This document shows positions 3,897-47,194 of a stretch of DNA of 64,000 nt, in pieces; the first letter of the stretch is position 1, and every line of letters starts with the position of its first letter. The DNA comes from a virus, in the IMG/VR virus record IMGVR_UViG_3300017743_005089, positions 1-64,000 of that record, one strand, 5' to 3'. The position numbers and the translations under genes are program-made. The notes beneath the pieces were generated by a model. The model saw only the letters and a list, made by a program, of their open reading frames with translations, was not told the DNA's origin and made no database searches.

Positions 3897-3897
3897 G

Positions 3898-7376: not shown

Positions 7377-7383
7377 ATACAAT
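7370..7383 (+). promoter_or_regulatory. AGTGTAA-type promoter box upstream of the I-J gene
   Basis: AGTGTAAATACAAT lies 24 bases before the ATG at 7394 and resembles the box repeated before at least eight other genes in this window. Here the transcript would have a short leader that includes an AGGAAAAAGG Shine-Dalgarno stretch. Promoter function is inferred from the recurrence. Confidence 0.45.
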
Positions 7384-7393
7384 AGGAAAAAGG

Positions 7394-16676: not shown

Positions 16677-17838
16677 GATTGTATATGTTTAGATGTTCTA
16701 CTTCTTCCCAAAAGTACTCACTATCGATAACTTTTTCGGGTTGCGAAGTTTTTTCGAAACCTTTTTCCCAAGCGGCTTTGCTGGAGTATTCTTTGTTATT
16801 TGATAGTAGTACTTTATTGCTTTGATAGAACGTATTATCACACACTTCAACACAAAAGTCAAGATCTTTTTTTTGCTTTGGAATAAAGTCATCTATATCT
16901 CTGTCAAAAAACTTAAATCTAATTTTATCTATTTTAGACAAGTCTTTGCAGATTAACATATAATTAATATTTAACAAATCTAGTCCTTCGAAATATTTTT
17001 CATCAAAACAATCGTCATCCATAAATATAGTCATACCAACAATGTTTGATTTAAACTGAGTTATAATATTTAAATCTATTTTTTTATTAATTAATAAATT
17101 TACTTTGTAGTTTAACCAAGGTAGAAAGAATTCTTCTTTTATCTCTAGGTCACACCTTAAGTTAATTATCTTTTTTGGGCTAAAATCTGGACTAGGCTTA
17201 AAATTAGGTATAGCTTCTATTATTTCTTGAGAATAAAAATTACCAATATTTAAAGTTTTATAAAGATTAAAGTCATGCTTTATTTCGAGCAAATCTAAGA
17301 CTGAAGCGCAGACTTCCTCTGGCTTTATTTCATTCACTCTTTTTGGAGATTCATTATCAGAGAAAGAAGCTTTGATTTTACTGTAGTCAACACTTATTAA
17401 TTTTGTTTCAGATTTTTTATTCCATACAGGCTTAGAGCATTCTGGATAAAGATTTGAATACAATGAAACAATCTTCTTGTCGTATAAGCTGGCTAGGTGA
17501 ACTGGTAAACTGTCTATCCCTAAATGTAGTTCAGCATTCTCTATGATGTAAGCCATTTGCTTAAAAGTACATTCTGGATAGTGAAAGTCACAAGCATCTA
17601 GGACGGGGTCATCCTTTCCACCTATTTGAACGATATCTATATTTAACTTAGATAGGTGAGGTTTTATTAAGTTTAAAACTGTAAACCAATAATCATAATG
17701 TCTTGCTGGTGATTTCTTGTCGTTCGTATGAAATGTTATAAATTTTTCAGACTTAACGGGAAAGAAGTGGTTCTTGAAAATTGGTTGCCCGATTTTGACT
17801 CCAAGTGATTTAGCGTACTCTTCTACTATATGACTCAT
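16654..17838 (-). CDS. C-terminal half of a split GT9 (heptosyltransferase-type) protein plus extra domain
   Basis: 394 residues. Residues 1-165 match only the second Rossmann half of GT9 enzymes: an FITFHTNDKKSPARHYDYW segment, then the nucleotide-sugar site AELHLGIDSLPVHLASL (102-118) and IVSLYSNLYPEC. The N-terminal Rossmann half is absent here but is present at the C-terminus of the product of 18233-20143. The opening HIVEEYAKSLGV is what normally follows the first half in intact GT9 proteins. About 230 further residues (after 165) are unassigned. The ATG overlaps the stop of the DUF6165 gene by four bases. It may complement the other half as a heterodimer; activity is not proven. Confidence 0.7.
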   Translation of the reverse strand: MSHIVEEYAKSLGVKIGQPIFKNHFFPVKSEKFITFHTNDKKSPARHYDYWFTVLNLIKPHLSKLNIDIVQIGGKDDPVLDACDFHYPECTFKQMAYIIENAELHLGIDSLPVHLASLYDKKIVSLYSNLYPECSKPVWNKKSETKLISVDYSKIKASFSDNESPKRVNEIKPEEVCASVLDLLEIKHDFNLYKTLNIGNFYSQEIIEAIPNFKPSPDFSPKKIINLRCDLEIKEEFFLPWLNYKVNLLINKKIDLNIITQFKSNIVGMTIFMDDDCFDEKYFEGLDLLNINYMLICKDLSKIDKIRFKFFDRDIDDFIPKQKKDLDFCVEVCDNTFYQSNKVLLSNNKEYSSKAAWEKGFEKTSQPEKVIDSEYFWEEVEHLNIYNHGQSKKK

Positions 17839-18236
17839 TGACCTACTGTATAATATTTTTGCTCTTCTATTTTTGAGCTAGTTATTTTGTTTATTTTATT
17901 TTTTATAAAAAATCTTTTATCGTTTTCTTTATATACTGATATAGATAAATCTATAAATTTCTGATCTAATTCTCCCGATTTTTCCTTCACTCTTTGTAGT
18001 TCTAAAATGTCCCAGAGGCTACTATTAACCTCAGTGATTTCAATAAGCATTTGTTTTAATTCGGGATGGGAAGAAATTAAGTCTTCACACATGGGTTTTA
18101 ATAATTTGTGTTCATTTTTTATATGAAAAAGTTTAGATGTATCTTTTATTTTGTTTTTTTTAACATCTAAGACTGACACTCTATCAAAAAGGTCTCCAAC
18201 CGACACAGGTATGGATATCATTCCATTATCATTCAT
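17835..18236 (-). CDS. DUF6165 family protein
   Basis: 133 residues with the DUF6165 pattern: ISIPVSVGDLFDRVSVLDVKK at the N-terminus, LIEITEVNSSLWDILE in the middle, then FIDLSISVYKENDKRFFIKNKIN. In bacterial genomes this family occurs beside GT9 and other envelope-sugar genes, and its biochemical role is unknown. Here it lies precisely between the two halves of a GT9 enzyme, with four-base ATGA overlaps on both sides, so the three proteins should be made in similar amounts. It may bind or scaffold the split transferase; this is inference. Confidence 0.75.
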   Translation of the reverse strand: MNDNGMISIPVSVGDLFDRVSVLDVKKNKIKDTSKLFHIKNEHKLLKPMCEDLISSHPELKQMLIEITEVNSSLWDILELQRVKEKSGELDQKFIDLSISVYKENDKRFFIKNKINKITSSKIEEQKYYTVGQ

Positions 18237-20143
18237 GGCATTAAATCGAAAGCATTTTTATCTTTTCCATTATGGCTGAAAGATAATATTTTTTGTGTTC
18301 CAATGTGAGGAAGGTAGGCAATCTCAAAATAACCCTTGTGATCAACCCTGCCCTCAAGAAAGGTTAGGCTGTCTAGTCCTGGACTATACGGAAGTACCCT
18401 GTGGACATTTTCGTTATCTTCTATCATTGGGTAAAATTTTGGCTTAGTTATAAAATATATATCATGCTCTGGGTATAGCTCCTTTAAGTTTGAGATTAAA
18501 GAGTTAGCCCATAGTACATCTCCTGCAGACTCAGGCATAACGACGGCAATCCTTCCTTCTGGAGAATCTCCATCTAGATAGTCTTCGAGGCTCGTAGCGC
18601 CTGATTTACCATTTTCTTTTTGAGCAACATCTTTGAAGTATTTAAGGATTTCACCCCTTGTTTTTCCTTGAGATATTTCGTTCATCCAATATTTATGGCC
18701 TTCGTTCGAGCTTGGATCGATATCCATATTTAATATATTTTTATATATATCAATTAACCAGTAGGAGTCAGATTCGATATGTGGAGGATTATAGTCGGGG
18801 TTTTTTTCCGCCTCCTTAAAATCAAAATCACAATTGTGATCTGGCATGTCGTCGATAATTTTTTCTAGTTTTTTACCAACGACATCTAGTGAAAAATTAT
18901 CCACAACAAATTGCCTACCTTTTTTACCCATATTGGATTTTTTTTGAGGCTTCATTTTGAATACTTTAGATAATTGTTTAGCTATACTAAATGGAGAGGT
19001 GCTCGCTTTTATAAATTGAGTGCCATGCTCTCTGTACTCAGACCAATCAAGCGGAAATGAACCTGATTCTGGAGTTGAAGTATCTTCCCCGCAACTATAA
19101 TTAGTCACAAGCGTAATAAGTTCAGTGAGTTTAGCTTCTTGTATAGGTATTTCTTGACCACCAGAAGTAAATGGGTGACAATAGACATCCATTAAATTAT
19201 ATATTTCATTTAATTGATTTTCGGAAACCCCATGTTTTACATTTGTGGTATTTTGAGACTTTGATGACCCGCAAAACTTACAATCTTGTTCTTGACCCGA
19301 AAAGGGTTTTATTTCATATTTCTTACAATGATTACAAAAGTACGTGGTTAAGATTTTAGAGTTATCTATCTCTTTTTCTTTTAACAGTCTAGGTATCTCC
19401 CAGCCTTCTCCCCAGTGGGTATGCAGTAAAAGTTTAGCATTACTACTTGGATTGTCTTCCGTAAACTTCTTGAAGCCATCTAATAGATTAGGAACACTTT
19501 TCCTTAGCTGATTCCTAAAAACAAAACCAATAATAAAAGCATTAGAATCTATGAAATATCTTTTCCTTAAGCTGGATCTTTCGTTATCTTTCAACCTGTA
19601 AAAACTTTTACAATCAACGCTACCTCTTAGCGTTCCAACATGTTCGTGGCCTAGTTTGTTTAAGGCTCTTTCGGCGAAGCTTGCCCAGACATAATAGTTT
19701 TTAATATGAGGCGCAGCTTCCACGGCTAAAGGTAGGATAGGCTCAGAATCCAAAGTAGTCCATATCATGCAATTTATATTGTTCCACCATTTTCTTTCCC
19801 AGAATTTATTAAAGCCCCATATATCTTCGGCGCCAATATAAACATCAGGTTTATACTCTTTTATTATCTCATCTATAGTTTCAGAGCCATAACCAGCAGA
19901 TCTATTCAAGTTAGGGTCTTTTTTAATTTGCTCAAGTTTCGCCCTATCTTCTGGAAGTGTTCCAACACATTTCCAAGGCAATTTAGATAAATTTGGAGAG
20001 TTTTTTACAAAACCATTGCATGCTTCAATTATTTCATACTTATCTGTTTTATACAAATAGGAAAGAATGTTTTTGCAATTTTTACCAAAACCAGTAAAAG
20101 CCTTACTGTGATTACTATGAAATAATACTTTTTTTTTGGACAT
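18233..20143 (-). CDS. GT4-type glycosyltransferase with zinc ribbon, DUF4214 and GT9 N-half
   Basis: 636 residues, four parts. Residues 1-430 form a GT-B/GT4 enzyme (KVLFHSNHSKAFTGFGKN; C-terminal nucleotide-sugar motif GGQEIPIQEAKL). A zinc ribbon CNHC ... CKFC (about 270-292) is inserted in the catalytic fold. Residues about 455-510 are a DUF4214-like module (SYWLIDIYKNILNMDIDPSS ... HKYWMNEI). Residues 531-636 are the first Rossmann half of a GT9 enzyme (RIAVVMPESAGDVLWANSLI ... YFEIAYLPHIGTQK), ending at HNGKDKNAFDLMP, where intact GT9 proteins continue. A GTG at 20155 is in frame, but the ATG at 20143 makes a TAATG junction with the previous stop and is preferred. Confidence 0.75.
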   Translation of the reverse strand: MSKKKVLFHSNHSKAFTGFGKNCKNILSYLYKTDKYEIIEACNGFVKNSPNLSKLPWKCVGTLPEDRAKLEQIKKDPNLNRSAGYGSETIDEIIKEYKPDVYIGAEDIWGFNKFWERKWWNNINCMIWTTLDSEPILPLAVEAAPHIKNYYVWASFAERALNKLGHEHVGTLRGSVDCKSFYRLKDNERSSLRKRYFIDSNAFIIGFVFRNQLRKSVPNLLDGFKKFTEDNPSSNAKLLLHTHWGEGWEIPRLLKEKEIDNSKILTTYFCNHCKKYEIKPFSGQEQDCKFCGSSKSQNTTNVKHGVSENQLNEIYNLMDVYCHPFTSGGQEIPIQEAKLTELITLVTNYSCGEDTSTPESGSFPLDWSEYREHGTQFIKASTSPFSIAKQLSKVFKMKPQKKSNMGKKGRQFVVDNFSLDVVGKKLEKIIDDMPDHNCDFDFKEAEKNPDYNPPHIESDSYWLIDIYKNILNMDIDPSSNEGHKYWMNEISQGKTRGEILKYFKDVAQKENGKSGATSLEDYLDGDSPEGRIAVVMPESAGDVLWANSLISNLKELYPEHDIYFITKPKFYPMIEDNENVHRVLPYSPGLDSLTFLEGRVDHKGYFEIAYLPHIGTQKILSFSHNGKDKNAFDLMP

Positions 20144-20712
20144 TATATAGGGCACTCAGAATCGCTAGATTCGTTCCTGGACTTAGAGAATGATTCTTTA
20201 TTTTTATTTATTCTAAATTCGTATACTTTATTAAGTATGACTTGTAGAAAGTTAGAAAGACATTCTGCTTCGCCTGGCTCAAGGGAGCATTTAAAGGTGC
20301 TACCCCCGTTCTTGATTATTGTAAGACCAAAAGCTGGCAAAATCTGAGGCTCTTCAATATACTTTTTTGTTTTAGGGTCAAACTTAGAGACCTTGGACTC
20401 TTTATCCCATGGAGTAAATTTTATAGTAGTTTTATTACCTTCAAATTGATGAAAAGTATCGTAGGCAAACCTATTCTTCACGGCATTAACTATTGACCCA
20501 CATTCAAACTCGTTAAATTTTAAAGTTATGTTTTTTTCAGGATCTTCTTTGTTGGCTATAAAAGTACCTCTCCTTGATTTGTCATCCCAGGAATGCTGCA
20601 TTATCGCCGATACAAAAAGTATAGGCTCTCCACTATTTTTGTCGTTTCCCATTGAAAAGCTGAAGCCGAATCCACTATTGTATTTGTTTGGTTTATATAA
20701 TTGTAAGCTCAT
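20143..20712 (-). CDS. Conserved phage protein, possible ssDNA-binding fold
   Basis: 189 residues, no family identified with certainty. The start SLQLYKPNKYNSGFGFSFS, then ILFVSAIMQHSWDDKSRRGT and ITLKFNEFECGSIVNAVKNR, show alternating beta strands with a basic/aromatic surface. This texture recalls whirly/PUR-type single-strand binding proteins of phages, but that is only a suggestion. It lies in the operon between the FmdB-like gene and the GT4 fusion, downstream of the perfect sigma70 promoter at 21110-21138. The C-terminus is a charged, serine-rich tail. Confidence 0.4.
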   Translation of the reverse strand: MSLQLYKPNKYNSGFGFSFSMGNDKNSGEPILFVSAIMQHSWDDKSRRGTFIANKEDPEKNITLKFNEFECGSIVNAVKNRFAYDTFHQFEGNKTTIKFTPWDKESKVSKFDPKTKKYIEEPQILPAFGLTIIKNGGSTFKCSLEPGEAECLSNFLQVILNKVYEFRINKNKESFSKSRNESSDSECPI

Positions 20713-20714
20713 GA

Positions 20715-21101
20715 TTAATCGAAGTCTATTTTGACGTTTTTACTTTCATATGTTTTACTTTTGTCCATATGATGTTTAACTCCATTTCTTTCTTTGGAGT
20801 AGTTTTTGAAATATTTTTTCTTTAAAGGGTCGACCCCTCCGTTTTTTTCCGCCCTCATCGAGGAAAGCTCAGAACTCTTATCAAGGAGGTCACCAACACT
20901 ACCTTTCATGTTGGCGGTTGAGTTCACAAAACTATTATTATCCCATGGATCTATAGATGCCTCTGTGTTAAGTTGCGAGGAAAGATATACTCTTTTCCAT
21001 TCTAAACCATCTTTATCGAAGTATTTTTTTTCATCATCCATGTGAAAGAAGACTTCAACTTCTTCATTGGTTTTTGGGTTCTGAAAGATGTACATTGGCA
21101 T
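20715..21101 (-). CDS. FmdB-like small phage protein without zinc cysteines
   Basis: 128 residues. The start MPMYIFQNPKTNEEVEVFF resembles the MPxYxF opening of FmdB-type zinc-ribbon proteins and their cyanophage/marine phage relatives, followed by WKRVYLSS. Unlike bacterial FmdB there are no CxxC pairs; the protein contains no cysteine at all. The C-terminal half (SVGDLLDKSSELSSMRAEK ... KKYFKNYSKER) looks helical and basic. Its ATG is only eight bases downstream of a perfect consensus sigma70 -10 element, so its mRNA would start at or next to the start codon. Function unknown. Confidence 0.5.
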   Translation of the reverse strand: MPMYIFQNPKTNEEVEVFFHMDDEKKYFDKDGLEWKRVYLSSQLNTEASIDPWDNNSFVNSTANMKGSVGDLLDKSSELSSMRAEKNGGVDPLKKKYFKNYSKERNGVKHHMDKSKTYESKNVKIDFD

Positions 21102-21109
21102 AACTATAG

Positions 21110-21138
21110 ATTATACCAGAATAAACAAGGTATGTCAA
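21110..21138 (-). promoter_or_regulatory. Perfect sigma70 promoter inside the leftward operon
   Basis: On the minus strand, TTGACA (21138-21133), a 17-base spacer and TATAAT (21115-21110) match the consensus at all 12 positions. The ATG of the next gene is at 21101, eight bases after the -10 element, so transcription should start about at the start codon. It would boost expression of genes from 21101 down to 15852. Confidence 0.85.
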
Positions 21139-21435
21139 CTATTTTTTATCTAAAAATGTACAGTTTAGTTGTATTAAGTCTAATAATGAATCGAAGAACC
21201 AACATACAGCAGAAGAGGACAAGGGTAAAAGTAAGTAGTAAATATTATTTTCGTGTAAAAAATACAAACTAATACCAATAAAAGCGCCACACCAAAAACC
21301 TAAACATAAGCTGCAGTTTAAAAGGTCTTTTAATACTTCAGACTTGTTAGATAACAAATTCCTAGGTAAATTTAATATGGATCCGTATCTAATGATCCAC
21401 ATTAAACCAATACAAGAGATTAATTCAAATATCAT
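21139..21435 (-). CDS. Small membrane protein with CxxCxGFWxG motif (DUF1360-like)
   Basis: 98 residues with hydrophobic segments near 1-17, 45-65 and 66-88, and the motif NCSLCLGFWCGAFIG, matching the C-x-x-C-x-G-F-W-x-G signature of DUF1360-type small membrane proteins found in bacteria and phages. The function of the family is unknown. The gene overlaps the upstream small gene by 11 bases and ends right at the -35 box of the internal promoter. Confidence 0.6.
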   Translation of the reverse strand: MIFELISCIGLMWIIRYGSILNLPRNLLSNKSEVLKDLLNCSLCLGFWCGAFIGISLYFLHENNIYYLLLPLSSSAVCWFFDSLLDLIQLNCTFLDKK

Positions 21436-21613
21436 CTAAAGCCTTGAGGGCTTCTTGCACAACCATTAATTGGTCCTTGGTCAAAGAAACCTCTCCCCCG
21501 AAGTCGTCCTTAAGGCTATAAAGATCAGGAGAATCTTTTGATTTTTTAAGTACGGGACATCTACCTTTCCCGCAGCACAGTAATACTCCGTTGTCTTGTT
21601 TTTTAATATTCAT
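21425..21613 (-). CDS. Small Cys-containing protein of unknown function
   Basis: 62 residues beginning MNIKKQDNGVLLCCGKGRCP, with a CCGKGRCP cluster that could bind metal, followed by a short beta/helix region (GEVSLTKDQLMVVQEALKAL). The start at 21613 overlaps the upstream stop as AATGA; a start 33 bases upstream also exists in frame but lies inside the neighbouring gene. CCGxxRCP proteins of this size are common in marine phages without known function. Confidence 0.5.
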   Translation of the reverse strand: MNIKKQDNGVLLCCGKGRCPVLKKSKDSPDLYSLKDDFGGEVSLTKDQLMVVQEALKALDDI

Positions 21614-22695
21614 TTTGACATTATTTTTAATATTTGATTTACGCAATTATCATAAGTGAACTTGTCTTTAATTTCAACACCTTTTTTATTTTTTTCAGAA
21701 ACTTTTGATAAAGCTTTATCTGTGGCCAAGTAAAAGGATTCATCATCGAAGGTGTTTAATTTACCTTGGTTGAAGTCAGACCCTTCGATGAAAAACGCTC
21801 CATCGTATATATCTTCTTTGCTTTTTGGCTCAACGAGTATTGAGTTATCTTTATTGGCCCAATCTTTATGTGAGGTTGAGTTTAAAACTATACTCCATTT
21901 CCCTAAGCAGGTAGAATTAAATGCGGGTAGGTTCCATCCTTCGGCTCCACTCAGGCCGCTAAGGTTTATATCTATAGAGTTGTAAACCTCATTCATTTCA
22001 GAATTTGTTTTGAGGTAAGGTAAGAAATTTATATTAGTAAAGGTCGTGTTTCCTAGAGATTGAGATAATATTTGAGCCATTTGCTCTGCTTTGAAGAATG
22101 GATTAGTAATACAACAAGTTAATTGATAGTCATTATTGTTGCCGTATCTATCGGCCCAGAGTTTTATAATTTTAGCGGTATGTTTTCTTTTCTCAAATTT
22201 ACCTATTAAACCAAAATTAATTCTATCTTTCAAATAAGTCTTTCCAGTTTCATGGATGTCTGGATCTATTCCAATTGGAACGTATTCAGAATTTTTAACG
22301 CCAGATTTTTTGAAGCATTCTTTGGCGTGAGAGCTGCTAAATATATTATGGTCTTGCATTAAGCATATATTTTTTTCAACATCTGTAGGCTTGTCGCATT
22401 CGTAAAAAGTATAAAGGTATTGATTTTTTCCTATTCTTGATTCTGCCCCATTAATGTGCCACATTTTTAAAGACGGGGCTTCGGGGTCTAATGTTTTAAA
22501 CCTATTGTCGTAGCGATCATTGACCCAAGAAATAAAGTCATCACTTAAACTGTCAAATGCGCTGAAATCTAGTTTTTGTCCCATGGGGAAAAAGCTGACG
22601 TTGACTTGTTTTTCGTATAAGACCCTCAACATATTAATTGAGACGTTACCAAAACTTAAAGAGTTTATTGGCGCTGAAAAATTTATTTTATCCAT
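21610..22695 (-). CDS. GT-B glycosyltransferase (GT4-like)
   Basis: 361 residues. The N-terminal Rossmann half starts KINFSAPINSLSFGNVSINM. The C-terminal half starts at RINFGLIGKFEKRKHTAKII, followed by EMNEVYNSIDINLSGLSGAEGWNLPAFNSTCLG, the GT4 position where the E-x7-E nucleotide-sugar motif lies, here reduced to an EGWNLPAFN form. It lies directly downstream of ssb (three bases apart) in the sigma-factor operon. The donor sugar cannot be predicted. Confidence 0.75.
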   Translation of the reverse strand: MDKINFSAPINSLSFGNVSINMLRVLYEKQVNVSFFPMGQKLDFSAFDSLSDDFISWVNDRYDNRFKTLDPEAPSLKMWHINGAESRIGKNQYLYTFYECDKPTDVEKNICLMQDHNIFSSSHAKECFKKSGVKNSEYVPIGIDPDIHETGKTYLKDRINFGLIGKFEKRKHTAKIIKLWADRYGNNNDYQLTCCITNPFFKAEQMAQILSQSLGNTTFTNINFLPYLKTNSEMNEVYNSIDINLSGLSGAEGWNLPAFNSTCLGKWSIVLNSTSHKDWANKDNSILVEPKSKEDIYDGAFFIEGSDFNQGKLNTFDDESFYLATDKALSKVSEKNKKGVEIKDKFTYDNCVNQILKIMSK

Positions 22696-22698: not shown

Positions 22699-23088
22699 TT
22701 AAAAAGGCATGTCTTGTTCTTCTACCATCTCTTTTATGTTAGCGCTTGGCTCTGGTATTTCAATATTATTTTCTGACACCTGTTTTTTTGAATTAGGTAA
22801 GAATCTAACTAGGTCTGCCCCTAAGTAAAATTTTTGCCTTGGGCTACCGCTCTTATCGTTCCACTTGCTGACTTTTATTTTGCCTTCAACATATATACAC
22901 GAACCTTTTGTTAAGAATTTCTTGCAATTATCAGCGGTTTTATTCCAGCACTCTGTGTCCATAAAAATAACATCATCTTTTGAGTTGTTAATAGCTATCG
23001 AGAAAGAGCACTTGGTGTTATTACTCTCAAAGGATTTTGTTTCTGGGTCTTTTGTTAGGTGACCTATCCCTATAAATTTATTAATCAT
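22699..23088 (-). CDS. ssb: Single-stranded DNA-binding protein
   Basis: 129 residues with the bacterial SSB OB-fold: INKFIGIGHLTKDPETK at the N-terminus, FSIAINNSKDDVIFMDTECWNKTADN, and IYVEGKIKVSKWNDKSG. The acidic tip EEQDMPF corresponds to the DDDIPF tail that recruits partner proteins in replication and repair. Length is near the lower end for the family because the disordered linker is short. It overlaps the upstream sigma-like gene by four bases (ATGA). Confidence 0.93.
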   Translation of the reverse strand: MINKFIGIGHLTKDPETKSFESNNTKCSFSIAINNSKDDVIFMDTECWNKTADNCKKFLTKGSCIYVEGKIKVSKWNDKSGSPRQKFYLGADLVRFLPNSKKQVSENNIEIPEPSANIKEMVEEQDMPF

Positions 23089-23678
23089 AATTCTTTTTTT
23101 AACTCCTTTTTTATTTTTAATATTGTTTTATTGTGAATGTTTATACATCCTTGTATGCTTAGTTTTAGTGGTTTGCATATCTTATGCCAAGGCATGACTT
23201 TATTTTTGCTGCCCTCTATGTATCTCATTTTAAATATTTTAGAAACCCGATTGTCTGGGTCTTTATTTATCATAGACATAATTTTGCTTAAAACCTCTAA
23301 ATCTATACTTGGTTGAGTGTCTAGCGCTTGCTTGTTAGAGAGGGACTGGTGATCCGCGTTAATCTCTTTACATTTCTTATTTTTATTGTAAAAATTTAAA
23401 CATAGCCATCTAGTTTCATTACCTAGGTGGGTAGAGAATTTAGTGTCTTTGGATTCGTCGTATTTTAAAGCTGCTTTGTAAATATAATAACCCTTATCTT
23501 TTAGTAGGTCTGTTCTGTCTGGAACGGTACCTGAAGTATGATTCATTGAGTAGTTATTAACCATAGTTATAAATATTCCGCTATGCCTATTGACTAGTTC
23601 ACCCAAGCTTTCCTCTGACTTTAATCCATCCTGTATGTTGTATACTAGGTCTATATCTGATAGTAAGTTTATTTTCAT
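23085..23678 (-). CDS. Phage sigma70-like RNA polymerase sigma factor
   Basis: 197 residues. The N-terminal part (DIDLVYNIQDGLKSEESLGELVNRHSG, then YYIYKAALKYDESKDTKFSTHLGNETRWL) matches sigma70 region 2, where A-x-x-x-Y-D-x-x-x-x-x-F-S-T is the core-binding/-10 melting segment. The C-terminal 60 residues (VSKIFKMRYIEG ... PWHKICKPLKLSIQGCINIHNK) look like a region 4 helix-turn-helix. It is small, like group 4 or phage late sigma factors. It is the first gene of the leftward operon behind a strong host-type promoter, as expected for a regulator that switches RNA polymerase to phage promoters, possibly the AGTGTAATATAAT class. Confidence 0.8.
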   Translation of the reverse strand: MKINLLSDIDLVYNIQDGLKSEESLGELVNRHSGIFITMVNNYSMNHTSGTVPDRTDLLKDKGYYIYKAALKYDESKDTKFSTHLGNETRWLCLNFYNKNKKCKEINADHQSLSNKQALDTQPSIDLEVLSKIMSMINKDPDNRVSKIFKMRYIEGSKNKVMPWHKICKPLKLSIQGCINIHNKTILKIKKELKKEL

Positions 23679-23699: not shown

Positions 23700-23729
23700 A
23701 TTCTAACATAGAATACCATAATGTGTCAA
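23700..23729 (-). promoter_or_regulatory. Strong sigma70 promoter for the leftward operon
   Basis: Minus strand: TTGACA (23729-23724), 18-base spacer, TAGAAT (23705-23700), 11 of 12 consensus matches. The ATG of the sigma gene is at 23678, about 21 bases after the -10 element, so this transcript has a short leader. A CGCGCGCG octamer lies about 20 bases upstream of the -35 element. Confidence 0.8.
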
Positions 23730-23749
23730 GAAAAAAAAGTAAAAAAATT

Positions 23750-23757
23750 ACGCGCGC
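23750..23757. promoter_or_regulatory. CGCGCGCG octamer in the divergent control region
   Basis: A self-complementary CG-only octamer in otherwise strongly AT-rich sequence, next to the -35 of the leftward promoter and beside the direct repeats. Possible protein-binding or Z-prone site; function unknown. Confidence 0.4.
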
Positions 23758-23760
23758 GAG

Positions 23761-23826
23761 GTCTACGTAAGAATAGATTAACGTAAGGATATAGATTAAC
23801 GTGAGAAATAATAAGATTAACATGAG
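23761..23826 (+). repeat. Direct repeat array (AGATTAACGTrAG) in the divergent regulatory region
   Basis: Three clear copies, AGATTAACGTAAG (23775-23787), AGATTAACGTGAG (23793-23805) and AGATTAACATGAG (23814-23826), plus a degenerate first copy GTCTACGTAAG (23761-23771). Start-to-start distances between the clear copies are 18 and 21 bases. They lie between the two divergent operons, upstream of both promoters, and look like binding sites for a regulator or replication initiator. Confidence 0.75.
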
Positions 23827-23830
23827 AAAA

Positions 23831-23852
23831 GCTTCAAAAATCTTTTTGAAGC
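23831..23852. repeat. Perfect 10-bp-arm palindrome upstream of the rightward operon
   Basis: GCTTCAAAAA-TC-TTTTTGAAGC is a perfect inverted repeat with a two-base loop. It occupies the place where a -35 element would be expected for the TATAAT at 23862-23867. No U-run follows, so an operator is likelier than a terminator. Confidence 0.7.
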
Positions 23853-23861
23853 ATTATAACA

Positions 23862-23867
23862 TATAAT
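23862..23867 (+). promoter_or_regulatory. TATAAT -10 element for the first rightward sugar gene
   Basis: TATAAT lies six bases before the ATG at 23874, so the transcript would be leaderless. No -35 consensus is seen at the right distance; the palindrome at 23831-23852 overlaps that position, suggesting regulated use. Confidence 0.5.
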
Positions 23868-23873
23868 TTAAAA

Positions 23874-24623
23874 ATGTCAAGTAAAAAAACCACATGTATA
23901 TTAACTTCTTATTTTTCGATAAAAAAGCATCCGCAGTACCTTGATCCAAATAATATTATTACAGGTTTGAATGAGTATGGCTTCGTTAAGCCTAACAACT
24001 TTGATTACATAGAAAATTTTTACAATTCAGTTGTTGATAAGGAATGCGATGTGTATATTTTTCACGACAACCTATCTAAAGAGTTCTTGGATGAATATCA
24101 AAAAAGTAATATAACTTTCTTGAAGGTTGCCCCCTCTAAGCTTAGCAATAATGATTCTAGGTTTTTCCATTACCACAATTTTTTGCACAAAAATTTCTAC
24201 GAAAAAGTATTCTTATCAGATGCTTGTGATGTTTTAGTTTCAAAAGACCCTTCGACTATGGAGCTAGACTTCGATATTTATTTTTGCAAGGATCTGATCA
24301 ATATGAACCAATATGGGTTTTCAGGTATACCGTTTGCTCAAATTTGCCGCAATCTTTCAATAGATATATCTGATTTAAATTTAAATCAACCGATGCTAAA
24401 TATGGGCGTAATAGGATTTAATTACGAAAATTCAATGAAGTTTTTATTTAAATTTTGCAGTCAAAGATTAAAATCAGGTTTTATTAGTGAAAACGTAAAT
24501 ATGACATTAGGGAATTATATTGCTCGAAAATATTTTAATCAAGTCTATTCAGGAGAGCCTTTTTGTAGTGAATTTAAAAAATACCAAAAAAACAGAAAAG
24601 ATGTTTACTTTATACATAAATAA
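23874..24623 (+). CDS. GT-A type glycosyltransferase
   Basis: 249 residues. It has the layout of GT-A enzymes that act on oligosaccharides: TTCILTSYFSIKKHP at the N-terminus, a predicted metal/nucleotide site FLSDACDVLVSKDPS (about 117-131), and LNMGVIGFN in the acceptor half. The DACD sequence replaces a textbook DxD. It is the first gene of the rightward sugar block and lies next to the palindrome and direct repeats. Substrate unknown. Confidence 0.6.
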   Translation: MSSKKTTCILTSYFSIKKHPQYLDPNNIITGLNEYGFVKPNNFDYIENFYNSVVDKECDVYIFHDNLSKEFLDEYQKSNITFLKVAPSKLSNNDSRFFHYHNFLHKNFYEKVFLSDACDVLVSKDPSTMELDFDIYFCKDLINMNQYGFSGIPFAQICRNLSIDISDLNLNQPMLNMGVIGFNYENSMKFLFKFCSQRLKSGFISENVNMTLGNYIARKYFNQVYSGEPFCSEFKKYQKNRKDVYFIHK

Positions 24624-24631
24624 AATATATT

Positions 24632-24794
24632 ATGAATCATATATGCAAAGGGGTTGATTTAAGTTTTGGCCACCAATTATCAAGGGGCGGAGGTTATCAT
24701 TTTCCAGGAATCATGAAGGCTGTCAATTCTTTTTTTTGGAAGAAGTCCTGATAAAGTTTACTCTGATCAATCCTGGGTATATAAACAACAATGA
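24632..24794 (+). pseudogene. Small gene interrupted by a frameshift at a T8 run
   Basis: An ATG at 24632 opens MNHICKGVDLSFGHQLSRGG and continues to a TGA at 24749-24751. Skipping one T in the run of eight (24730-24737) gives FFGRSPDKVYSDQSWVYKQQ and a TGA at 24792-24794, which overlaps the next ATG as ATGA, the junction used throughout this operon. That coincidence suggests the intact gene once had seven T residues, or that slippage on the T8 run still makes the full product. The function of the roughly 53-residue product is not recognisable. Confidence 0.5.
24757..24785 (+). promoter_or_regulatory. Sigma70-like promoter for the gene at 24791
   Basis: TTTACT (24757-24762), 17-base spacer, TATAAA (24780-24785). 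The ATG follows after five bases, so any transcript would be leaderless. Confidence 0.5.
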
Positions 24795-25522
24795 TTCAAT
24801 ACAACTTAGTTCTCCAAGACAGAAACTGGGTGATGGAAAAACTTGCAAATCATTTCCATAAGTATATACCCAACTCCAAGATCTCTAACAATGCAGACAT
24901 CAACGCTGATGTAAACTTCTATTTTAATTGGCATGCTATGGTTAGCAAAACTAAATTCGATGTTTGTTATTTTACCCATATAGAAGATATGAACTGGTGG
25001 AGTAGGATATCATCTACGTGCGATGTAGCTATATCAATGGGGAAAAAATACCTAAACAAATTACCTAAAGATAAGGCGATTGTTTTCTATCCACCGCCTT
25101 TCGAGAGCTTTTTGCCACAAAAAAACATTAAAATTTTAGTAGTCGGAAGACCCTATAAATCAGGAAGAAAAAACTTTGAATCTTTAGATTCTATAAAATG
25201 TTTAGATAATATAGAATTAACATTCACAGGAGGTAAACTTTCTGAGGATCAGTTAAAAAAAGCATATCTCAATACTGATTATGTTTTAATTACTTCCAAG
25301 ATTGAGGCGGGTCCAATGTGTGTTGTGGAAGCTATTTCAATGAAGAAGCCTGTAATAGCTCCAGACGTCGGCTGGTGCTGGGAATACCCAGTAATCAGGT
25401 ATAACAATGAAGATGCCTTAAAAAGCATAATTAAAAAAATATCCTTCGCTCCTGGCTTGTGGAACGAAAGAGTTAGTGAAGTTACAAAAAAAATAAATAA
25501 TAAATTTTATGCAAATCAATAA
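24791..25522 (+). CDS. GT4-like glycosyltransferase
   Basis: 243 residues, short for GT4 because the N-terminal Rossmann half is reduced. The C-terminal half is clear: IKILVVGRPYKSGRKNFE, then TDYVLITSKIEAGPMCVVEAISMKKPVIAPDVG, the E-x-G-P...E-A nucleotide-sugar motif. An internal HIEDMNWW segment may help acceptor binding. The 3' end overlaps the methyltransferase gene by 14 bases. Confidence 0.8.
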   Translation: MIQYNLVLQDRNWVMEKLANHFHKYIPNSKISNNADINADVNFYFNWHAMVSKTKFDVCYFTHIEDMNWWSRISSTCDVAISMGKKYLNKLPKDKAIVFYPPPFESFLPQKNIKILVVGRPYKSGRKNFESLDSIKCLDNIELTFTGGKLSEDQLKKAYLNTDYVLITSKIEAGPMCVVEAISMKKPVIAPDVGWCWEYPVIRYNNEDALKSIIKKISFAPGLWNERVSEVTKKINNKFYANQ

Positions 25523-26084
25523 ATACGCAAAAGATAAAAACTTAAATTCAATCAATTTACATTTAGGATGCGGAGGCAACCATTGGCAGGGCTGGATAAA
25601 TATAGACAATTATGATTTTGATCCCAAAGACACCTCAAGGAGCGGCTCAAATTATGACATAAAAATGGATATACGCAACTTAGAAGTCGAAGACTCTACT
25701 GTTGATAAAATAGCCCTAATCCATACTGTAGAACATTTTGTTAGATGGGAAACGGTTAAGTTATTATCTCATTTTTATGATAAACTTAAATCGGGCGGCG
25801 AATTAATCATCGAGATGCCAGACCTAGACAAATGTATCGAATGGTATCTAAAGGGTAAATCCACACGCCATATTGAAACCCCACTAGGTAAACTCAACAT
25901 GGGTTTTACTCAATTTTACGGGAACCAATGGAGTGAAATTGATTTTGAGACACATAGGTATGTCTGGACAAAAGATGAATTTTCAAAAGTTCTTTCTGAT
26001 TGTGGCTTTACGGTTAAAGAGATACATAATGAAAGATCAACTCATGAAAAAGGTCGTGATATGTTCGTTAGAGCATTGAAATAA
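25509..26084 (+). CDS. Class I SAM-dependent methyltransferase
   Basis: 191 residues. Motif I is LHLGCGGNHWQGWINID (about 17-33), followed by the acidic YDIKMDIRNL and the VDKIALIHTVEHF segment. LKSGGELIIEMPDLDKC is the post-motif strand. This is the Methyltransf_11-type fold often found next to sugar transferases, where it caps or modifies sugars. The acceptor is not predictable. It lies between a GT4 gene and gmd. Confidence 0.8.
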   Translation: MQINKYAKDKNLNSINLHLGCGGNHWQGWINIDNYDFDPKDTSRSGSNYDIKMDIRNLEVEDSTVDKIALIHTVEHFVRWETVKLLSHFYDKLKSGGELIIEMPDLDKCIEWYLKGKSTRHIETPLGKLNMGFTQFYGNQWSEIDFETHRYVWTKDEFSKVLSDCGFTVKEIHNERSTHEKGRDMFVRALK

Positions 26085-26103
26085 ATACTTTAAATTATAT
26101 TAT
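26076..26103 (+). promoter_or_regulatory. Sigma70-like promoter for gmd
   Basis: TTGAAA (26076-26081), 16-base spacer, TATTAT (26098-26103), then seven bases to the ATG at 26111: another leaderless arrangement. Confidence 0.5.
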
Positions 26104-26110
26104 ATTAATA

Positions 26111-27160
26111 ATGAAAAAAATAATAGTAACAGGAGTAACAGGTCAAGACGGAAGCCACATGGTAGATTATCTACTAGAACTTTTTCAGAAAGATTTTGGA
26201 AAGAAAGATTTTATGATATACGGAGCTGTAAGAAGGCTTAGCGTAAAGAATCATGAAAATATCTTGCATCTTGAGAACGAACCGAGGTTTCAATTGATCA
26301 ACATGGATTTAAATGATGCCCACAGTATAAGAGACGCAGTTATAGATATCCAACCAGATTACTTTATTAATTTTGCAGCACAATCTTTTGTTGCTGGTAG
26401 TTGGGATTATCCGATACAAACTTGGGATACAGATGCCGATTCAGTATTACATATGTTAGAATCTATAAGAAGGTTTTGTCCTAGTTGCCGTTTTTACAAT
26501 GCAGGGTCCTCAGAAGAATTTGGAGATGTAATAAGAACACCTCAAGATGAAGCCCATCCATTACGGCCACAGTCTCCATACGGTGCAGCTAAATGTGCAG
26601 CCAGACATATCGTAAGGGTGTATAGAGAATCCTACGGATTGTATGCCGTACAAGGTTGGCTATTCAACCATGAAGGAACAAGGAGAGGGCTTGATTTTGT
26701 TACAAGAAAAATCAGTAATGGCGTAGCTAAAATCAAACACGCCATTGAAAGCAATAAAGAAATACCAGTTTTAAGCTTGGGAAATTTGGAAGCCAAGAGG
26801 GATTGGACCGATGCCGAAGACTTCATGAGTGGAGTATGGATAATGATGAACCAGAAAAATCCTAAAAATTATGTCCTCGCCAGCGGCGAGATGCATACAG
26901 TCAGGGAGTTCTTAAACGAAACTTTAAAATGTGCAAACATAGATTTCGTATCAAAAGGAGATGGTGAAGAAGAAAAATACTACACAAAAGACGGAGGTTT
27001 AATCTTTGAAATTAATCCCAAATTCTACAGACCCGCTGAAGTTTACAAGCTCTGCGGAGACAGTTCCTTAGCTGAAAAAGAAATGGGATGGAAGAGGAAT
27101 ACTAACTTCCTTGGTCTCGTCGAGAAAATGTATAAAAATGATTACGCGCTATTGAGCTAG
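26111..27160 (+). CDS. gmd: GDP-mannose 4,6-dehydratase
   Basis: 349 residues, normal for the family. NADP-binding TGVTGQDGSHMVDYLL at the N-terminus, the family signature FINFAAQSFVAGSWDYPI, catalytic GSSEEFG with the YGAAK Tyr-x-x-x-Lys pair, and the tetramer/substrate segment WLFNHEGTRRG. It converts GDP-D-mannose to GDP-4-keto-6-deoxy-D-mannose, the branch point to GDP-L-fucose (fcl, 31957) and to GDP-4-amino sugars (aminotransferase, 30851), both encoded within 6 kb. No GDP-mannose synthesis gene is visible, so host GDP-mannose is presumably used. Confidence 0.93.
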   Translation: MKKIIVTGVTGQDGSHMVDYLLELFQKDFGKKDFMIYGAVRRLSVKNHENILHLENEPRFQLINMDLNDAHSIRDAVIDIQPDYFINFAAQSFVAGSWDYPIQTWDTDADSVLHMLESIRRFCPSCRFYNAGSSEEFGDVIRTPQDEAHPLRPQSPYGAAKCAARHIVRVYRESYGLYAVQGWLFNHEGTRRGLDFVTRKISNGVAKIKHAIESNKEIPVLSLGNLEAKRDWTDAEDFMSGVWIMMNQKNPKNYVLASGEMHTVREFLNETLKCANIDFVSKGDGEEEKYYTKDGGLIFEINPKFYRPAEVYKLCGDSSLAEKEMGWKRNTNFLGLVEKMYKNDYALLS

Positions 27161-27187
27161 TTCAATACAAAAACACTTGCAAACAAT

Positions 27188-28294
27188 ATGCCAAAAAAAA
27201 AATGCATATTATTGATCGCCCACAATACTGCGCTTAAATCCTATTTAGAGATTTTCCAGGAGATAGGCGTTGGTTGCTATTTTCAACCTTCATGCGAATG
27301 CCCAAAAGAAGAATCCAGTAAGAATATAGATCCTAAATTCTTAGTTATAGATAAAGATTTAGATAGGTTTGACCTATACAAAGATAATCACGATGAAAAA
27401 GATCTCGATGAAATAAAAAGAATCGTAGTTAATAAAGGTTACGATTTTTTAATATCATATCATTGGCCACCTTTTTCTTTAAATAAGTGCTTTATAGATT
27501 CAGGAATTAATTGTTTTTTTTTAATATGGGGTGGGCCAGAAAAAGATTTATTTCATGGTTATAAATACGGCAAGAATAAATTAATGCACAAACTCATAAC
27601 CTCTTCCAATAATTCTCAATATTTATTATGCCATAGCTACTTAAGTCGCCTTTTTAAAGGAGACGCACTTGTAGAGAGTTTAAAAACTTTAAACATACCT
27701 CATTCGTTCAGCGAAAAAACAAACAGTACTTGGCTTAAAACTGATCAAGAAAATTATGTTTTAATTGTTTGCAGTAGGTTGAATAATAAAAACGGTGTAA
27801 AAAATTTAAATTTACTTAAATCTATTTTCAAAACTTGCCATGATGTAAATTTTGTTTTATGTGGAAAAGGTAATAGTGGCTTAAAATTAGGTGGCAATGT
27901 TGAAGTATTTGATGCTCCAGAAGCATCCGACGTTCTCGTCAAAATGCAAAAAGCCAAACTTTTTTTATATTTTCAAGCCGTTTTTTATCCTTTTTTATCT
28001 GGACAAATACTTCAGTATTCCCCCATTGAGGCCTCCATGGTTGGATTGCCTATTTTACACTGTTCATCTAATCCAATAAACGCTATTATAGAAACCCCTG
28101 ACAGCCATAATTTTAAGGTTTCGTGGGGGGATGAGGTTTATTTTAACTACAGCGAAATTCATTCTAAGATAAAAAGAATCCTATCCCTACCCAAAAGAAA
28201 AGTTTTAAAAGAATTTTCCTACCAAAAACAATTATCGGACAATTATTCTATTGAATTTCTAAAAGATTCTTATAAAAGTTTTTTTCTTTCATGA
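27188..28294 (+). CDS. GT-B glycosyltransferase (GT4-like)
   Basis: 368 residues. The N-terminal half (CILLIAHNTALKSYLEIF ... YDFLISYHWPPF) and C-terminal half (YVLIVCSRLNNKNGVKNLNLL, FVLCGKG, then QYSPIEASMVGLPILHCSSN) have GT-B form; SPIEASMVGLPI is the E-A-x-x-x-G-x-P nucleotide-sugar motif. No Shine-Dalgarno sequence or clear promoter is seen in the 27-base gap after gmd. It overlaps the next gene by four bases. Confidence 0.7.
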   Translation: MPKKKCILLIAHNTALKSYLEIFQEIGVGCYFQPSCECPKEESSKNIDPKFLVIDKDLDRFDLYKDNHDEKDLDEIKRIVVNKGYDFLISYHWPPFSLNKCFIDSGINCFFLIWGGPEKDLFHGYKYGKNKLMHKLITSSNNSQYLLCHSYLSRLFKGDALVESLKTLNIPHSFSEKTNSTWLKTDQENYVLIVCSRLNNKNGVKNLNLLKSIFKTCHDVNFVLCGKGNSGLKLGGNVEVFDAPEASDVLVKMQKAKLFLYFQAVFYPFLSGQILQYSPIEASMVGLPILHCSSNPINAIIETPDSHNFKVSWGDEVYFNYSEIHSKIKRILSLPKRKVLKEFSYQKQLSDNYSIEFLKDSYKSFFLS

Positions 28295-29154
28295 ATATTC
28301 TTATCGTAAATATGGGTAATAACGGTGATGTACTCAATAGTACCCCGATAGCCTTTCATTTTAAAAATTTCAAAAAGCCTAACAGGGTGGATTTTTTAAC
28401 GAAAATTAAATATAAGAATTTATTAGAAAACAACCCAAGCATAGATAATGTTCTAGATACTGGTTTAGAGCTAGAAGACTCTCCACCCAAATACCACTCA
28501 CATACAATACAGCATGAATTAGATTCGTACATTGATACATCTAAATATAAAAAAATATTCTTCTCAGCGCCATACATGTCTCAAGACTACAATGATGGCT
28601 TTTCAGATAAATCTTTATTACAACTCACAAAGGGGGTTGTTAAAAGGTGGCGTTGTAAATTCTTACCCCAAGTTAAACTAAGCCCAAGCGAAGAGTTAGA
28701 GGCACAAATTTTCTTTGCTAAACTAAAAGGTTGCTATAAGGTGTTAGTAGAGTATGAATTTGAATCCAATCAAAGTTCTTTTAATTATCAATATATGAAT
28801 CATATATGTAATCATTTTCAGAAAAAAAATATTGACATCATATTAACTAGCAAAAATAAGCCCGAGTTTATGGAAGTGTTAGAACAACACTATGATGATA
28901 TAAATTTTTACCATTACAGCAATTCCTTTATGTCCAATGCTAAATTGTATAATTTAGTTGATTTATTTGTAGGATGTTCCTCTGGTTTGACCTGCTTAAC
29001 TTCCAGTAATTATTGTGATTCAAACAAAAAACGAATAGAAGTTTGTAATGGGCCTCACTGGTCAACCAAACTTTGGAGTCACAACTCAAAAAACAAAGAC
29101 ATATGCTACAATTTAGAATCATTCAAACAATCGATAAACAACATAACAATATAA
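28291..29154 (+). CDS. GT9-like glycosyltransferase
   Basis: 287 residues. The start MNILIVNMGNNGDVLNSTPIA matches the GT9 (ADP-heptose transferase type) N-terminal Rossmann loop, followed by DFLTKIKYKNLLENNPSID. The C-terminal site is LVDLFVGCSSGLTCLTSSN, where GT9 enzymes have a small-residue GxxS motif. Shorter than typical GT9 (about 320-350). It is followed by a DUF4254-like gene, a pairing also seen in bacterial envelope sugar clusters. Confidence 0.75.
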   Translation: MNILIVNMGNNGDVLNSTPIAFHFKNFKKPNRVDFLTKIKYKNLLENNPSIDNVLDTGLELEDSPPKYHSHTIQHELDSYIDTSKYKKIFFSAPYMSQDYNDGFSDKSLLQLTKGVVKRWRCKFLPQVKLSPSEELEAQIFFAKLKGCYKVLVEYEFESNQSSFNYQYMNHICNHFQKKNIDIILTSKNKPEFMEVLEQHYDDINFYHYSNSFMSNAKLYNLVDLFVGCSSGLTCLTSSNYCDSNKKRIEVCNGPHWSTKLWSHNSKNKDICYNLESFKQSINNITI

Positions 29155-29158
29155 AATC

Positions 29159-29467
29159 ATGGCAGATACATTAGGATCAATAATAGACAAGCTTTGCACC
29201 GCAGACTTGAAAATGTGGAACAACCAAGAACTACTTTACGAAATAAGGAGAATGTCTTTTGATGAATACAAAGATAAATACTTTAAAGACGAAGAGGGAG
29301 CGCAAAAGTTATGGCAATGCCTCAAAAGGGCTTGCGACTTAAACGTCCAGAGAAATCAACTTATAGATGAGGTTGATGAAAAAGTTATAGAAATAATAAG
29401 TGAGTCTAAAAATGGAGGAGAATTGGATAACGGAAAATTCATACAGAGAAAGCATAAAACTTATTAA
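29159..29467 (+). CDS. DUF4254-like protein
   Basis: 102 residues, helical: LGSIIDKLCTADLKMWNNQ at the N-terminus and CDLNVQRNQLIDEVDEKVIEI at the C-terminus fit the DUF4254 pattern (DLIDKLxxxxLKxW ... NxxRNxLxxxID). That family occurs beside GT9 transferases; biochemical role unknown. The leftward operon has its own GT9-associated small protein (DUF6165), so both sugar blocks contain a GT9 plus small-partner pair. Confidence 0.6.
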   Translation: MADTLGSIIDKLCTADLKMWNNQELLYEIRRMSFDEYKDKYFKDEEGAQKLWQCLKRACDLNVQRNQLIDEVDEKVIEIISESKNGGELDNGKFIQRKHKTY

Positions 29468-29470
29468 TCC

Positions 29471-29483
29471 TGTGTAATATCAT
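29471..29483 (+). promoter_or_regulatory. AGTGTAATATAAT-class box (TGTGTAATATCAT)
   Basis: The GTG start of the next gene lies 15 bases from the first base of the box, with no Shine-Dalgarno sequence between them. Confidence 0.5.
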
Positions 29484-29485
29484 GT

Positions 29486-30439
29486 GTGAAATTCTTAGAA
29501 AACCTTGACCTAATATCTCATCTCAGGGGTCCCGAAATGCTGGAGGTTTACTCTAGATGCGGAATGGGGGACATACTAATACTAAGAGATTTTTTATTTG
29601 GCGCTGGAGATACTGAAGTTACCAAGTGCGAATGTTGCGGCTCACCAATACGAGACCCCAAAAAAAATGAATATCTAAATTACCATATAATTTTTTATTT
29701 AACTCCATTAACTACAAGAATTAAAGACGGAAACCCCACCTATATAGAAGATTTCCTTAAACCTTTTATGGCTTTGTTATTTGCGGATATAGATAATCTC
29801 TTTGTTTCTTTTTGTACTCATTTTCACCAATCTAGCTGCGGAGACTCTGGCCTCTATTATGAATTCAAGTCCCCACACAAGAACCTATCAGAGTTAGAGG
29901 CTTACAAAAAAATAACCATACCAGACTTGTCTAATATTTTGTTTAAAAATTTTCACCCCGAACCCTTGGTTGAAAATTTATCAAAAACTAATTACATATG
30001 CGTCTCAACTAGATATAGAATGTTCTCCCCAATCAGCGAAAAAGTGGCTTTTTTTAAAATGCTATTTTACGATAGAATTGTAAATACAAACATTAAAGTT
30101 ATTTTAATAGGGGAAAAGTCCGATAGTTATGACTTCCAATCCTCCTACTCAATATTAAGGAAAATGATTCCTAATGAAAATTTAATAGACTTAACTACTG
30201 ATACCTTTTTTTTAAGGAACGCTATTACGGATGCTTTTTTATTTAAAAATTCTTCCCTATCACTATGTTTTGGCATAGGCGGCAGTTTTGTAATTGGCAA
30301 TTATACTCATGCTAACATTTTATCTTATACCGACTTGGGTGAAAATCATCCATTTGTTAATAAATCTCAAACATCTTCTGTCTACGGAGATATTCACTCT
30401 TTCTGCAGAGAAGCTATGCTACAAATTTCTAAATTATAA
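29486..30439 (+). CDS. Putative glycosyltransferase, GT-B-like, with Cys pairs
   Basis: 317 residues, family uncertain. VYSRCGMGDILILRDFLFG near the N-terminus resembles the G-x-G-D loop of GT9-type enzymes, and LSLCFGIGGSFVIGNYT near the C-terminus resembles their acceptor/donor strand. A CECCGSPI motif at about 49-56 could bind zinc. The GTG at 29486 is chosen because it sits at the standard distance from the promoter box; the ATG at 29482 leads to an early stop, and the next ATG would remove 17 residues. Confidence 0.5.
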   Translation: MKFLENLDLISHLRGPEMLEVYSRCGMGDILILRDFLFGAGDTEVTKCECCGSPIRDPKKNEYLNYHIIFYLTPLTTRIKDGNPTYIEDFLKPFMALLFADIDNLFVSFCTHFHQSSCGDSGLYYEFKSPHKNLSELEAYKKITIPDLSNILFKNFHPEPLVENLSKTNYICVSTRYRMFSPISEKVAFFKMLFYDRIVNTNIKVILIGEKSDSYDFQSSYSILRKMIPNENLIDLTTDTFFLRNAITDAFLFKNSSLSLCFGIGGSFVIGNYTHANILSYTDLGENHPFVNKSQTSSVYGDIHSFCREAMLQISKL

Positions 30440-30444
30440 AAAAC

Positions 30445-30861
30445 ATGTTCATTTCAATAAGTTTACCAAACTTACATAAGCTTAATAATTTTATAGGTAA
30501 AATAGGCAAATCTTCAACTTCTTTCAGGTATTTTAAGTCCAGAAAACCAGAAGACGCTATAAAGTTCCATAAACACACTTTGCTATTCTACAAAGATAGC
30601 GAGGTCATAGGTTATGGCCACCTTGATTTAGACTCAAATGACAATAAATTGTGGCTAGGGATATGTGTAATTGACAAGTATTGCGGAATGGGTTATGGAA
30701 AAATTATAATGGAAAAATTAATATCACTACAAGATGAAGACATCTATCTGTCCGTGGATAGGTCTAATCTACCTGGAGTTAATCTTTATAAAAAATTTGG
30801 ATTTAAAACTATTGACAGTAATGAAAAATATTTTATAATGAAAAGGACTCATGAAGTATAA
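30445..30861 (+). CDS. GNAT family N-acetyltransferase
   Basis: 138 residues. Strand VIGYGHLDLDSNDNKLWLGICV, then the acetyl-CoA loop GMGYGKIIMEKLI (R/Q-x-x-G-x-G/A motif with GMGYGK), and VNLYKKFGFKTI, all typical of GNAT. Directly upstream of the sugar aminotransferase, it could N-acetylate the 4-amino sugar made there, as WecD-like GNAT enzymes do; this is inferred from position. It overlaps the aminotransferase gene by 11 bases. Confidence 0.8.
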   Translation: MFISISLPNLHKLNNFIGKIGKSSTSFRYFKSRKPEDAIKFHKHTLLFYKDSEVIGYGHLDLDSNDNKLWLGICVIDKYCGMGYGKIIMEKLISLQDEDIYLSVDRSNLPGVNLYKKFGFKTIDSNEKYFIMKRTHEV

Positions 30862-33812: not shown

Positions 33813-33846
33813 ACTCCACTGTTAATAACTTTTTTATTTTTTATTC

Positions 33847-33875
33847 TTGATATACACTATTTTTTATGGTAGTAT
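33847..33875 (+). promoter_or_regulatory. Sigma70-like promoter upstream of nrdA
   Basis: TTGATA (33847-33852), 17-base spacer, TAGTAT (33870-33875). It would give a leader of about 55 bases before the ATG at 33939. Confidence 0.5.
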
Positions 33876-33922
33876 ATTTATCTCAGTTATTTTATCATTT
33901 TTTATAAATAACTTAACCTCAT

Positions 33923-47128: not shown

Positions 47129-47194
47129 ATAATTATTACTATTAAACCCCTTGATTATACTAATGTCGAATTCCTAGACAAGCCAAATTGGTAA
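47125..47194 (+). pseudogene. Gene-junction scar: start of one gene joined to the end of another
   Basis: The first 19 bases, ATGAATAATTATTACTATT, are identical to the start of the fucosyltransferase-like gene at 43491. They are followed at once by a stop codon. In another frame the remaining bases read IKPLDYTNVEFLDKPNW and a stop, a plausible gene end. The structure looks like what is left when a fucosyltransferase-like gene and its neighbour were deleted by recombination. Confidence 0.6.

What the first reader, a model, noticed from the sequence alone, without database searches (positions are those of the whole stretch)
23701..23873. Divergent control region with four direct repeats, a palindrome and a CG octamer
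Between the sigma-operon promoter and the first rightward gene lie three clear AGATTAACGTrAG repeats and a degenerate fourth, a perfect 10-bp-arm palindrome and CGCGCGCG in AT-rich DNA. Repeats on one strand at 18-21-base spacing resemble iterons or operators on one helical face; the palindrome covers the -35 place of the rightward TATAAT. This could be the early/late switch or an origin of replication.
Basis: partly seen in the sequence, partly recalled or inferred. Interest (0 to 1): 0.68.

Follow-up and report, generated by a model that had tools for sequence, protein, structure and literature searches.

The report
Phage control region beside swappable genes
In a family of uncultured marine phages, a short stretch of DNA holds two strong leftward promoters, a repeat array and a palindrome in front of a phage sigma-factor gene, and it also marks the sharp edge where neighbouring sugar-modifying genes are swapped, most of them taking their start codon from the opposite strand of a promoter.

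Summary
In detail: four direct repeats, a 10-bp-arm palindrome and a CG octamer lie at 23751-23852. Alone they are only modestly above chance; comparison is decisive. Twenty distinct related loci keep one order: P1, repeats, palindrome, P2 (repeats: 52 observed, 0.63 in shuffles). The conserved TATAAT is on the minus strand: P2 is a 12/12 sigma-70-type promoter facing the sigma/SSB operon, perfect in 19 of 20 loci; the rightward TATAAT is exact in about 3. P2's -35 box (TTGACAT) is the complement of the rightward gene's start (ATGTCAA). To the right the first gene belongs to seven unrelated families, changing 11 times on the tree (no better than shuffled), yet 16 of 20 start at that ATGTCAA; to the left the operon order is invariant. 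So this is a promoter/operator region, probably early, that is also the left joint of a variable glycan-gene island. What binds the repeats and palindrome is inferred, not shown. A replication origin is not excluded but has no support beyond the repeats: skew follows transcription and the repeats share no helical face. CGCGCGCG is not conserved.

The parts
23853..23880 (-). P2: distal leftward sigma-70-type promoter, TTGACA-N16-TATAAT with TG before the -10; its -35 plus the next T (TTGACAT) is the complement of the rightward ATGTCAA start
   Evidence: 12/12 consensus; perfect in 19 of 20 loci, 11/12 in L073; its -10 and most of its -35 are invariant columns
23700..23729 (-). P1: proximal leftward promoter TTGACA-N18-TAGAAT with TG before the -10, just upstream of the sigma gene
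   Evidence: 11/12 consensus; -35 TTGACA kept in all 20 loci, -10 variable
23759..23826 (+). Array of four 13-bp direct repeats, consensus AGRTYWACGTRAG, spacing 16/18/21; candidate operators (or iterons)
   Evidence: 52 copies in 20 loci against 0.63 in shuffles; clusters only at this locus
23831..23852 (.). Palindrome directly downstream of the P2 -10, over its expected start site; candidate operator or hairpin
   Evidence: paired changes in relatives; 18/20 loci at score 8 or more
23751..23758 (.). CGCGCGCG; not part of the conserved module (similar runs only in the nearest relatives)
23085..23678 (-). Sigma-70-family-like protein, first gene of the conserved leftward operon
   Evidence: AF2 model pLDDT 83; leading PDB and named viral fold matches are sigma factors; weak Sigma70_r2 hits in 6 of 12 members
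22699..23088 (-). Single-strand DNA-binding protein, second gene of the operon
   Evidence: Pfam SSB 5.4e-21, phrog_44
15852..22695 (-). Rest of the leftward operon; order the same in all 20 loci, apart from small gene F10, which was called in only part of them
23874..24623 (+). First rightward gene (weakly glycosyltransferase-like, phrog_1579); its start codon lies in the complement of P2's -35 region
23874..33900 (+). Variable glycan-gene island with its left edge at P2; conserved gene F14 (33939-36398, ribonucleotide reductase by inspection) follows

Best explanation
The region is the promoter/operator of a conserved leftward phage operon that starts with a sigma-family-like gene and SSB. 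Two tandem sigma-70-type promoters, P2 (distal, 12/12 consensus) and P1 (proximal), both point left and would be read by host RNA polymerase early in infection (timing inferred). The palindrome over P2's start and the 2-5 repeats between P2 and P1 are most likely binding sites through which a phage or host regulator tunes or shuts off this operon (inferred; no binder known). The same 200 bp is also the left joint of a variable island of glycan genes: unrelated genes are exchanged right at P2, and in 16 of 20 loci they take their ATG from the complement of P2's -35 box (TTGACAT/ATGTCAA). Shown by sequence: conservation of the module, its orientation, the gene exchange and the shared start. Inferred: timing, regulator binding, promoter activity itself, and exchange by recombination in the conserved flank.
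For: P2 12/12 in 19 of 20 loci, all facing the sigma gene; rightward TATAAT exact in about 3 of 20 (read). Repeats 52 against 0.63, only at this locus. Palindrome pairs 1-5 and 9 occur as two or more Watson-Crick types, with no G.T cell. Left operon syntenic in all 20, first right gene from 7 families. Close pairs 93-100% identical on the left drop to about 50% just after the start (L057/L058 100 to 50). 11 changes of first-gene family on the sigma+SSB tree, shuffled mean 12.1. Serine codon 2 is TCA in all 19 loci that have an ATG here although TCA is 21% of serine codons, and the motif stays where it no longer starts the long gene (L057, L066, L073, L074), so the constraint is on DNA. Sigma fold.
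Against: No transcription or binding data. No protein that would bind the repeats was identified. Palindrome length varies from 20 to 26 bp, odd for one rigid dimer. No rightward promoter was found for the island. P1's -10 is weak in several relatives. The sigma assignment rests on fold (whole-chain TM about 0.4) and weak profile hits.
Confidence: 0.65

Rival explanations
1. Replication origin: the repeats are iterons bound by an initiator, the AT-rich flank unwinds, and transcription from P2/P1 activates it, as at the lambda origin.
For: Near-identical direct repeats at one place only, copy number varying between relatives, 25% GC surroundings, a palindrome, flanking promoters and an SSB gene next door. 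The lambda and Stx-phage origins hold 4-6 iterons beside an AT-rich tract (PMC7466680).
Against: Coding-strand 4-fold skew has the same sign on both sides (-0.32 left, -0.42 right), i.e. it follows transcription; the + strand genes at 0.5-15.9 kb do not behave as lagging-strand genes of an origin here would. Helicase, primase and polymerase genes lie 40-50 kb away. More distant relatives have the sigma gene without the repeats. No initiator identified.
Confidence: 0.14
2. RNA-level control: the palindrome is a 5' stem-loop of the P2 transcript (stability, pausing or antitermination) and the repeats are RNA-binding sites in its leader.
For: Stem of about -10 kcal/mol, better than nearly all shuffles; pairing rather than sequence or length is conserved; it lies at the 5' end of the predicted P2 RNA.
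Against: In the window's clade the palindrome starts right after the -10, so a normal start site would cut off most of its first arm; no G.T cells although RNA would allow them; the leader with the repeats folds no better than shuffles (z 0.76).
Confidence: 0.13
3. Intrinsic terminator: the palindrome ends a transcript.
For: The scan calls one terminator-like site on the - strand in the window, TTTTCTC after the stem.
Against: It begins directly after the P2 -10, and the T tract is absent in most relatives.
Confidence: 0.03

Closest known systems
PeSL cassettes (promoter early stem-loop) of T4-like phages
   Same: A conserved host-type early promoter with a stem-loop is linked to shuffling of phage genes (described in PMC4503421).
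   Different: Here one copy per genome, palindrome without a conserved T tract, promoters pointing away from the shuffled genes, and a repeat array included. The primary PeSL papers could not be read.
Lambdoid phage replication origin (iterons plus AT-rich tract)
   Same: Several direct repeats next to AT-rich DNA, beside promoters (PMC7466680).
   Different: Not inside an initiator gene, no initiator known, no skew signal, replication genes far away.
Classical phage operator/promoter region with tandem operators
   Same: Divergent intergenic region, repeated sites between two promoters, palindrome at a start site.
   Different: No repressor gene identified; both conserved promoters face the same way. 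Comparison from general knowledge.
Exchangeable polysaccharide loci with conserved flanks (O-antigen or capsule type)
   Same: Unrelated glycan gene sets exchanged between conserved flanks.
   Different: In a phage, and the flank is a promoter whose complement supplies the start codon. Comparison from general knowledge.

Membership tests
sigma-70-type promoter (P2) | TTGACA and TATAAT 16-18 nt apart | tested here: met
   12/12 in the window and in 19 of 20 loci, N16/17
sigma-70-type promoter (P2) | transcription starts there in vivo | not testable with these tools
   no RNA data
PeSL | host-type early promoter adjacent to a stem-loop | tested here: met
   earliness itself is inferred
PeSL | stem-loop acts as a terminator | tested here: not met
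   no conserved T tract on either strand
PeSL | many copies in shuffled regions of one genome | tested here: not met
   no second copy in the 100,970-bp record
iteron origin | direct repeats beside an AT-rich tract | tested here: met
iteron origin | initiator protein that binds the repeats | not testable with these tools
   none identified by sequence
iteron origin | strand-composition switch independent of transcription | tested here: not met
   4-fold-site skew follows transcription
operator array | sites spaced on one helical face | tested here: not met
   phases 0/189/86/86 degrees; also scattered in L043, L044 and L052
operator array | repeats conserved in place next to promoters | tested here: met
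sigma-70 family (protein 23085-23678) | sigma fold | tested here: met
   PDB matches such as 8hkc_E (E. coli sigma32, E 3e-4) and phage sigma factors
sigma-70 family (protein 23085-23678) | significant sequence-profile match | tested here: inconclusive
   Sigma70_r2 in 6 of 12 members, best E 0.054; phrog_36 'transcriptional regulator' 1e-4

The most novel reading that the evidence does not exclude
P2 is a two-sided plug-in joint: on one strand the -35 box of the sigma operon's strong promoter, on the other a ready-made start codon, so that unrelated glycan genes can be fused in by recombination without bringing their own start, while selection on the promoter keeps the joint identical for the next exchange.
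Probability: 0.35. Interest if true: 0.65.

Novelty: new variant of a known kind. Interest (0 to 1): 0.5.

Why it matters
Phage genomes are mosaics, but why joints fall where they do is rarely visible. Here selection on an antisense promoter appears to preserve a common start for unrelated genes, a simple and testable explanation of how a hypervariable island stays translatable through repeated exchange. It also gives a clear target (P2, repeats, palindrome) for finding the early regulator of an uncultured marine phage family.

Tried and rejected
Search for relatives with the single sigma protein found none; SSB and then a sigma alignment worked. A strict repeat pattern found nothing; a relaxed one found module loci plus six unrelated stretches, several plainly coding. 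No Rfam family worth keeping (one sub-threshold hit). No second copy of the module in the record. 'One helical face' rejected. CG octamer as a conserved element rejected. Terminator rejected (T tract not conserved). Rightward TATAAT as the key promoter rejected. No match to the sigma protein in the phage records. Host not settled: one contig each in MAGs labelled Flavobacteriaceae and Halobacteriovorax, and binning of phage contigs is unreliable. Paper searches for a described precedent of the start-codon/-35 overlap were few and narrow, so absence there means little.

Full report
What is there. The window is part of a 100,970-bp IMG/VR virus record of a tailed phage with a lambda-J-like tail protein and long stretches of glycosyltransferase-like genes. 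Between the start of a leftward gene (23678) and the start of a rightward gene (23874) lie 195 bp, 25% GC.

Chance. In that 195 bp alone, shuffles reach three repeat copies in 16/500 and a 10-bp arm in 8/500, so comparison was needed. The SSB gene brought 24 loci and a sigma alignment 80. Twenty distinct loci, the window included, carry the module; their sigma proteins are 47-73% identical to the window's. In them repeats number 52 against 0.63 expected, and palindromes 18/20 against 1.0. Repeat clusters occur only in module loci apart from one weak pair elsewhere.

Direction. Both conserved promoters are on the minus strand. P2 (23880-23853) is TTGACA-N16-TATAAT with TG before the -10 and is perfect in 19 of 20; P1 (23729-23700) is 11/12 in the window with a variable -10 in relatives. 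Invariant alignment columns fall in the P2 -10 and -35. Sigma relatives outside these 20 (mostly 42-53% identical) show no module; in those inspected, the sequence upstream of the sigma gene looks like another gene rather than this intergenic region (read by eye; no family search of that gene was made).

The leftward operon. Its first protein folds like a sigma factor (model pLDDT 83; leading PDB matches and the named viral matches are sigma factors), though Pfam profiles hit it only weakly. SSB follows. The order sigma-SSB-F6-F5-F4-F3-(F10)-F2-F1 is the same in all 20 loci.

The rightward island. The first gene belongs to F13, F11, F26, F18, F0 or one of two families without relatives in the set. 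Close pairs that are 93-100% identical on the left fall to about 50% just after the start codon. On a sigma+SSB tree the first-gene family changes 11 times, shuffled mean 12.1, so it does not follow descent. Conserved genes (the F0 set and F14) come back 3-10 kb to the right in loci long enough to show it. Genes that are first in one phage are internal in another: the F18 gene starts MSSEKILIVN in L045 but MNILIVN inside the window's island at 28291.

The shared start. In 16 of 20 loci the first gene begins ATGTCAA, giving MSSK or similar in six unrelated families. The second codon is TCA in all 19 loci with an ATG here although TCA is 21% of serine codons. The motif persists where it is not the start of the long gene: L066 (six-codon frame), L057 (a short frame before the real gene), L074 (five-codon frame) and L073 (ACG in place of ATG). 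The constraint is therefore on DNA, and the -35 box of P2 explains it: TTGACAT is the complement of ATGTCAA.

Palindrome. Its pairs vary together and without G.T cells. It starts 0 nt after the P2 -10 in the window's clade and about 3-5 nt after it in the other. That fits a dyad operator at the start site better than an RNA hairpin in the window's clade, but a length of 20-26 bp is unusual for one dimer. I leave this open.

Origin. Coding-strand 4-fold-site skew is -0.32 in the left operon and -0.42 in the island, so it follows transcription. The tail block (+0.17) is an unexplained exception. There is no direct evidence for or against initiation here.

Known systems. The nearest idea is the PeSL of T4-like phages, a promoter with a stem-loop at shuffling joints (PMC4503421); this differs in copy number, terminator and orientation. 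The lambda origin (PMC7466680) is the model for the main rival.

What is inferred. Promoter activity, early timing, regulator binding, and exchange by recombination in the conserved flank are inferences from sequence. No expression or binding data were available.

Noticed in passing
window 532-15855: The tail-gene block has coding-strand 4-fold-site GC skew +0.17, while all other blocks on either strand are -0.16 to -0.42.
   Followed up: no
window 21138 (-) and 30812 (+): Two further 12/12 consensus promoters (N17 and N16), upstream of the genes at 20715-21101 and 30851.
   Followed up: no
L027 12608-13285: A second protein with a C-terminal helix-turn-helix-like match (phrog_3855, phrog_1058), possibly another sigma-like factor.
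   Followed up: partly
L027 4821-4862: TTGACAT-N-CTAACAT promoter-like site directly before a gene that starts ATGTCAA, resembling P1 plus a similar start, here in the same direction.
   Followed up: no
window 42018-57876: Several related genes (family F23 at 42018, 44379 and 46532; a similar one at 57286) that look sulfotransferase-like by eye.
   Followed up: no
window 3898-5625: Collagen-like GPAGADGAV repeats in a tail-region protein.
   Followed up: no
L057, first 120 bp after P2: A short frame with the MSS start stops before a second, intact gene: it looks like the remnant of a replaced first gene.
   Followed up: partly
L123: The same module on a contig binned in a Flavobacteriaceae MAG; a weak host lead.
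   Followed up: partly
window, many gene starts: Few genes show a Shine-Dalgarno sequence and leaders are AT-rich (read by eye, not counted).
   Followed up: no
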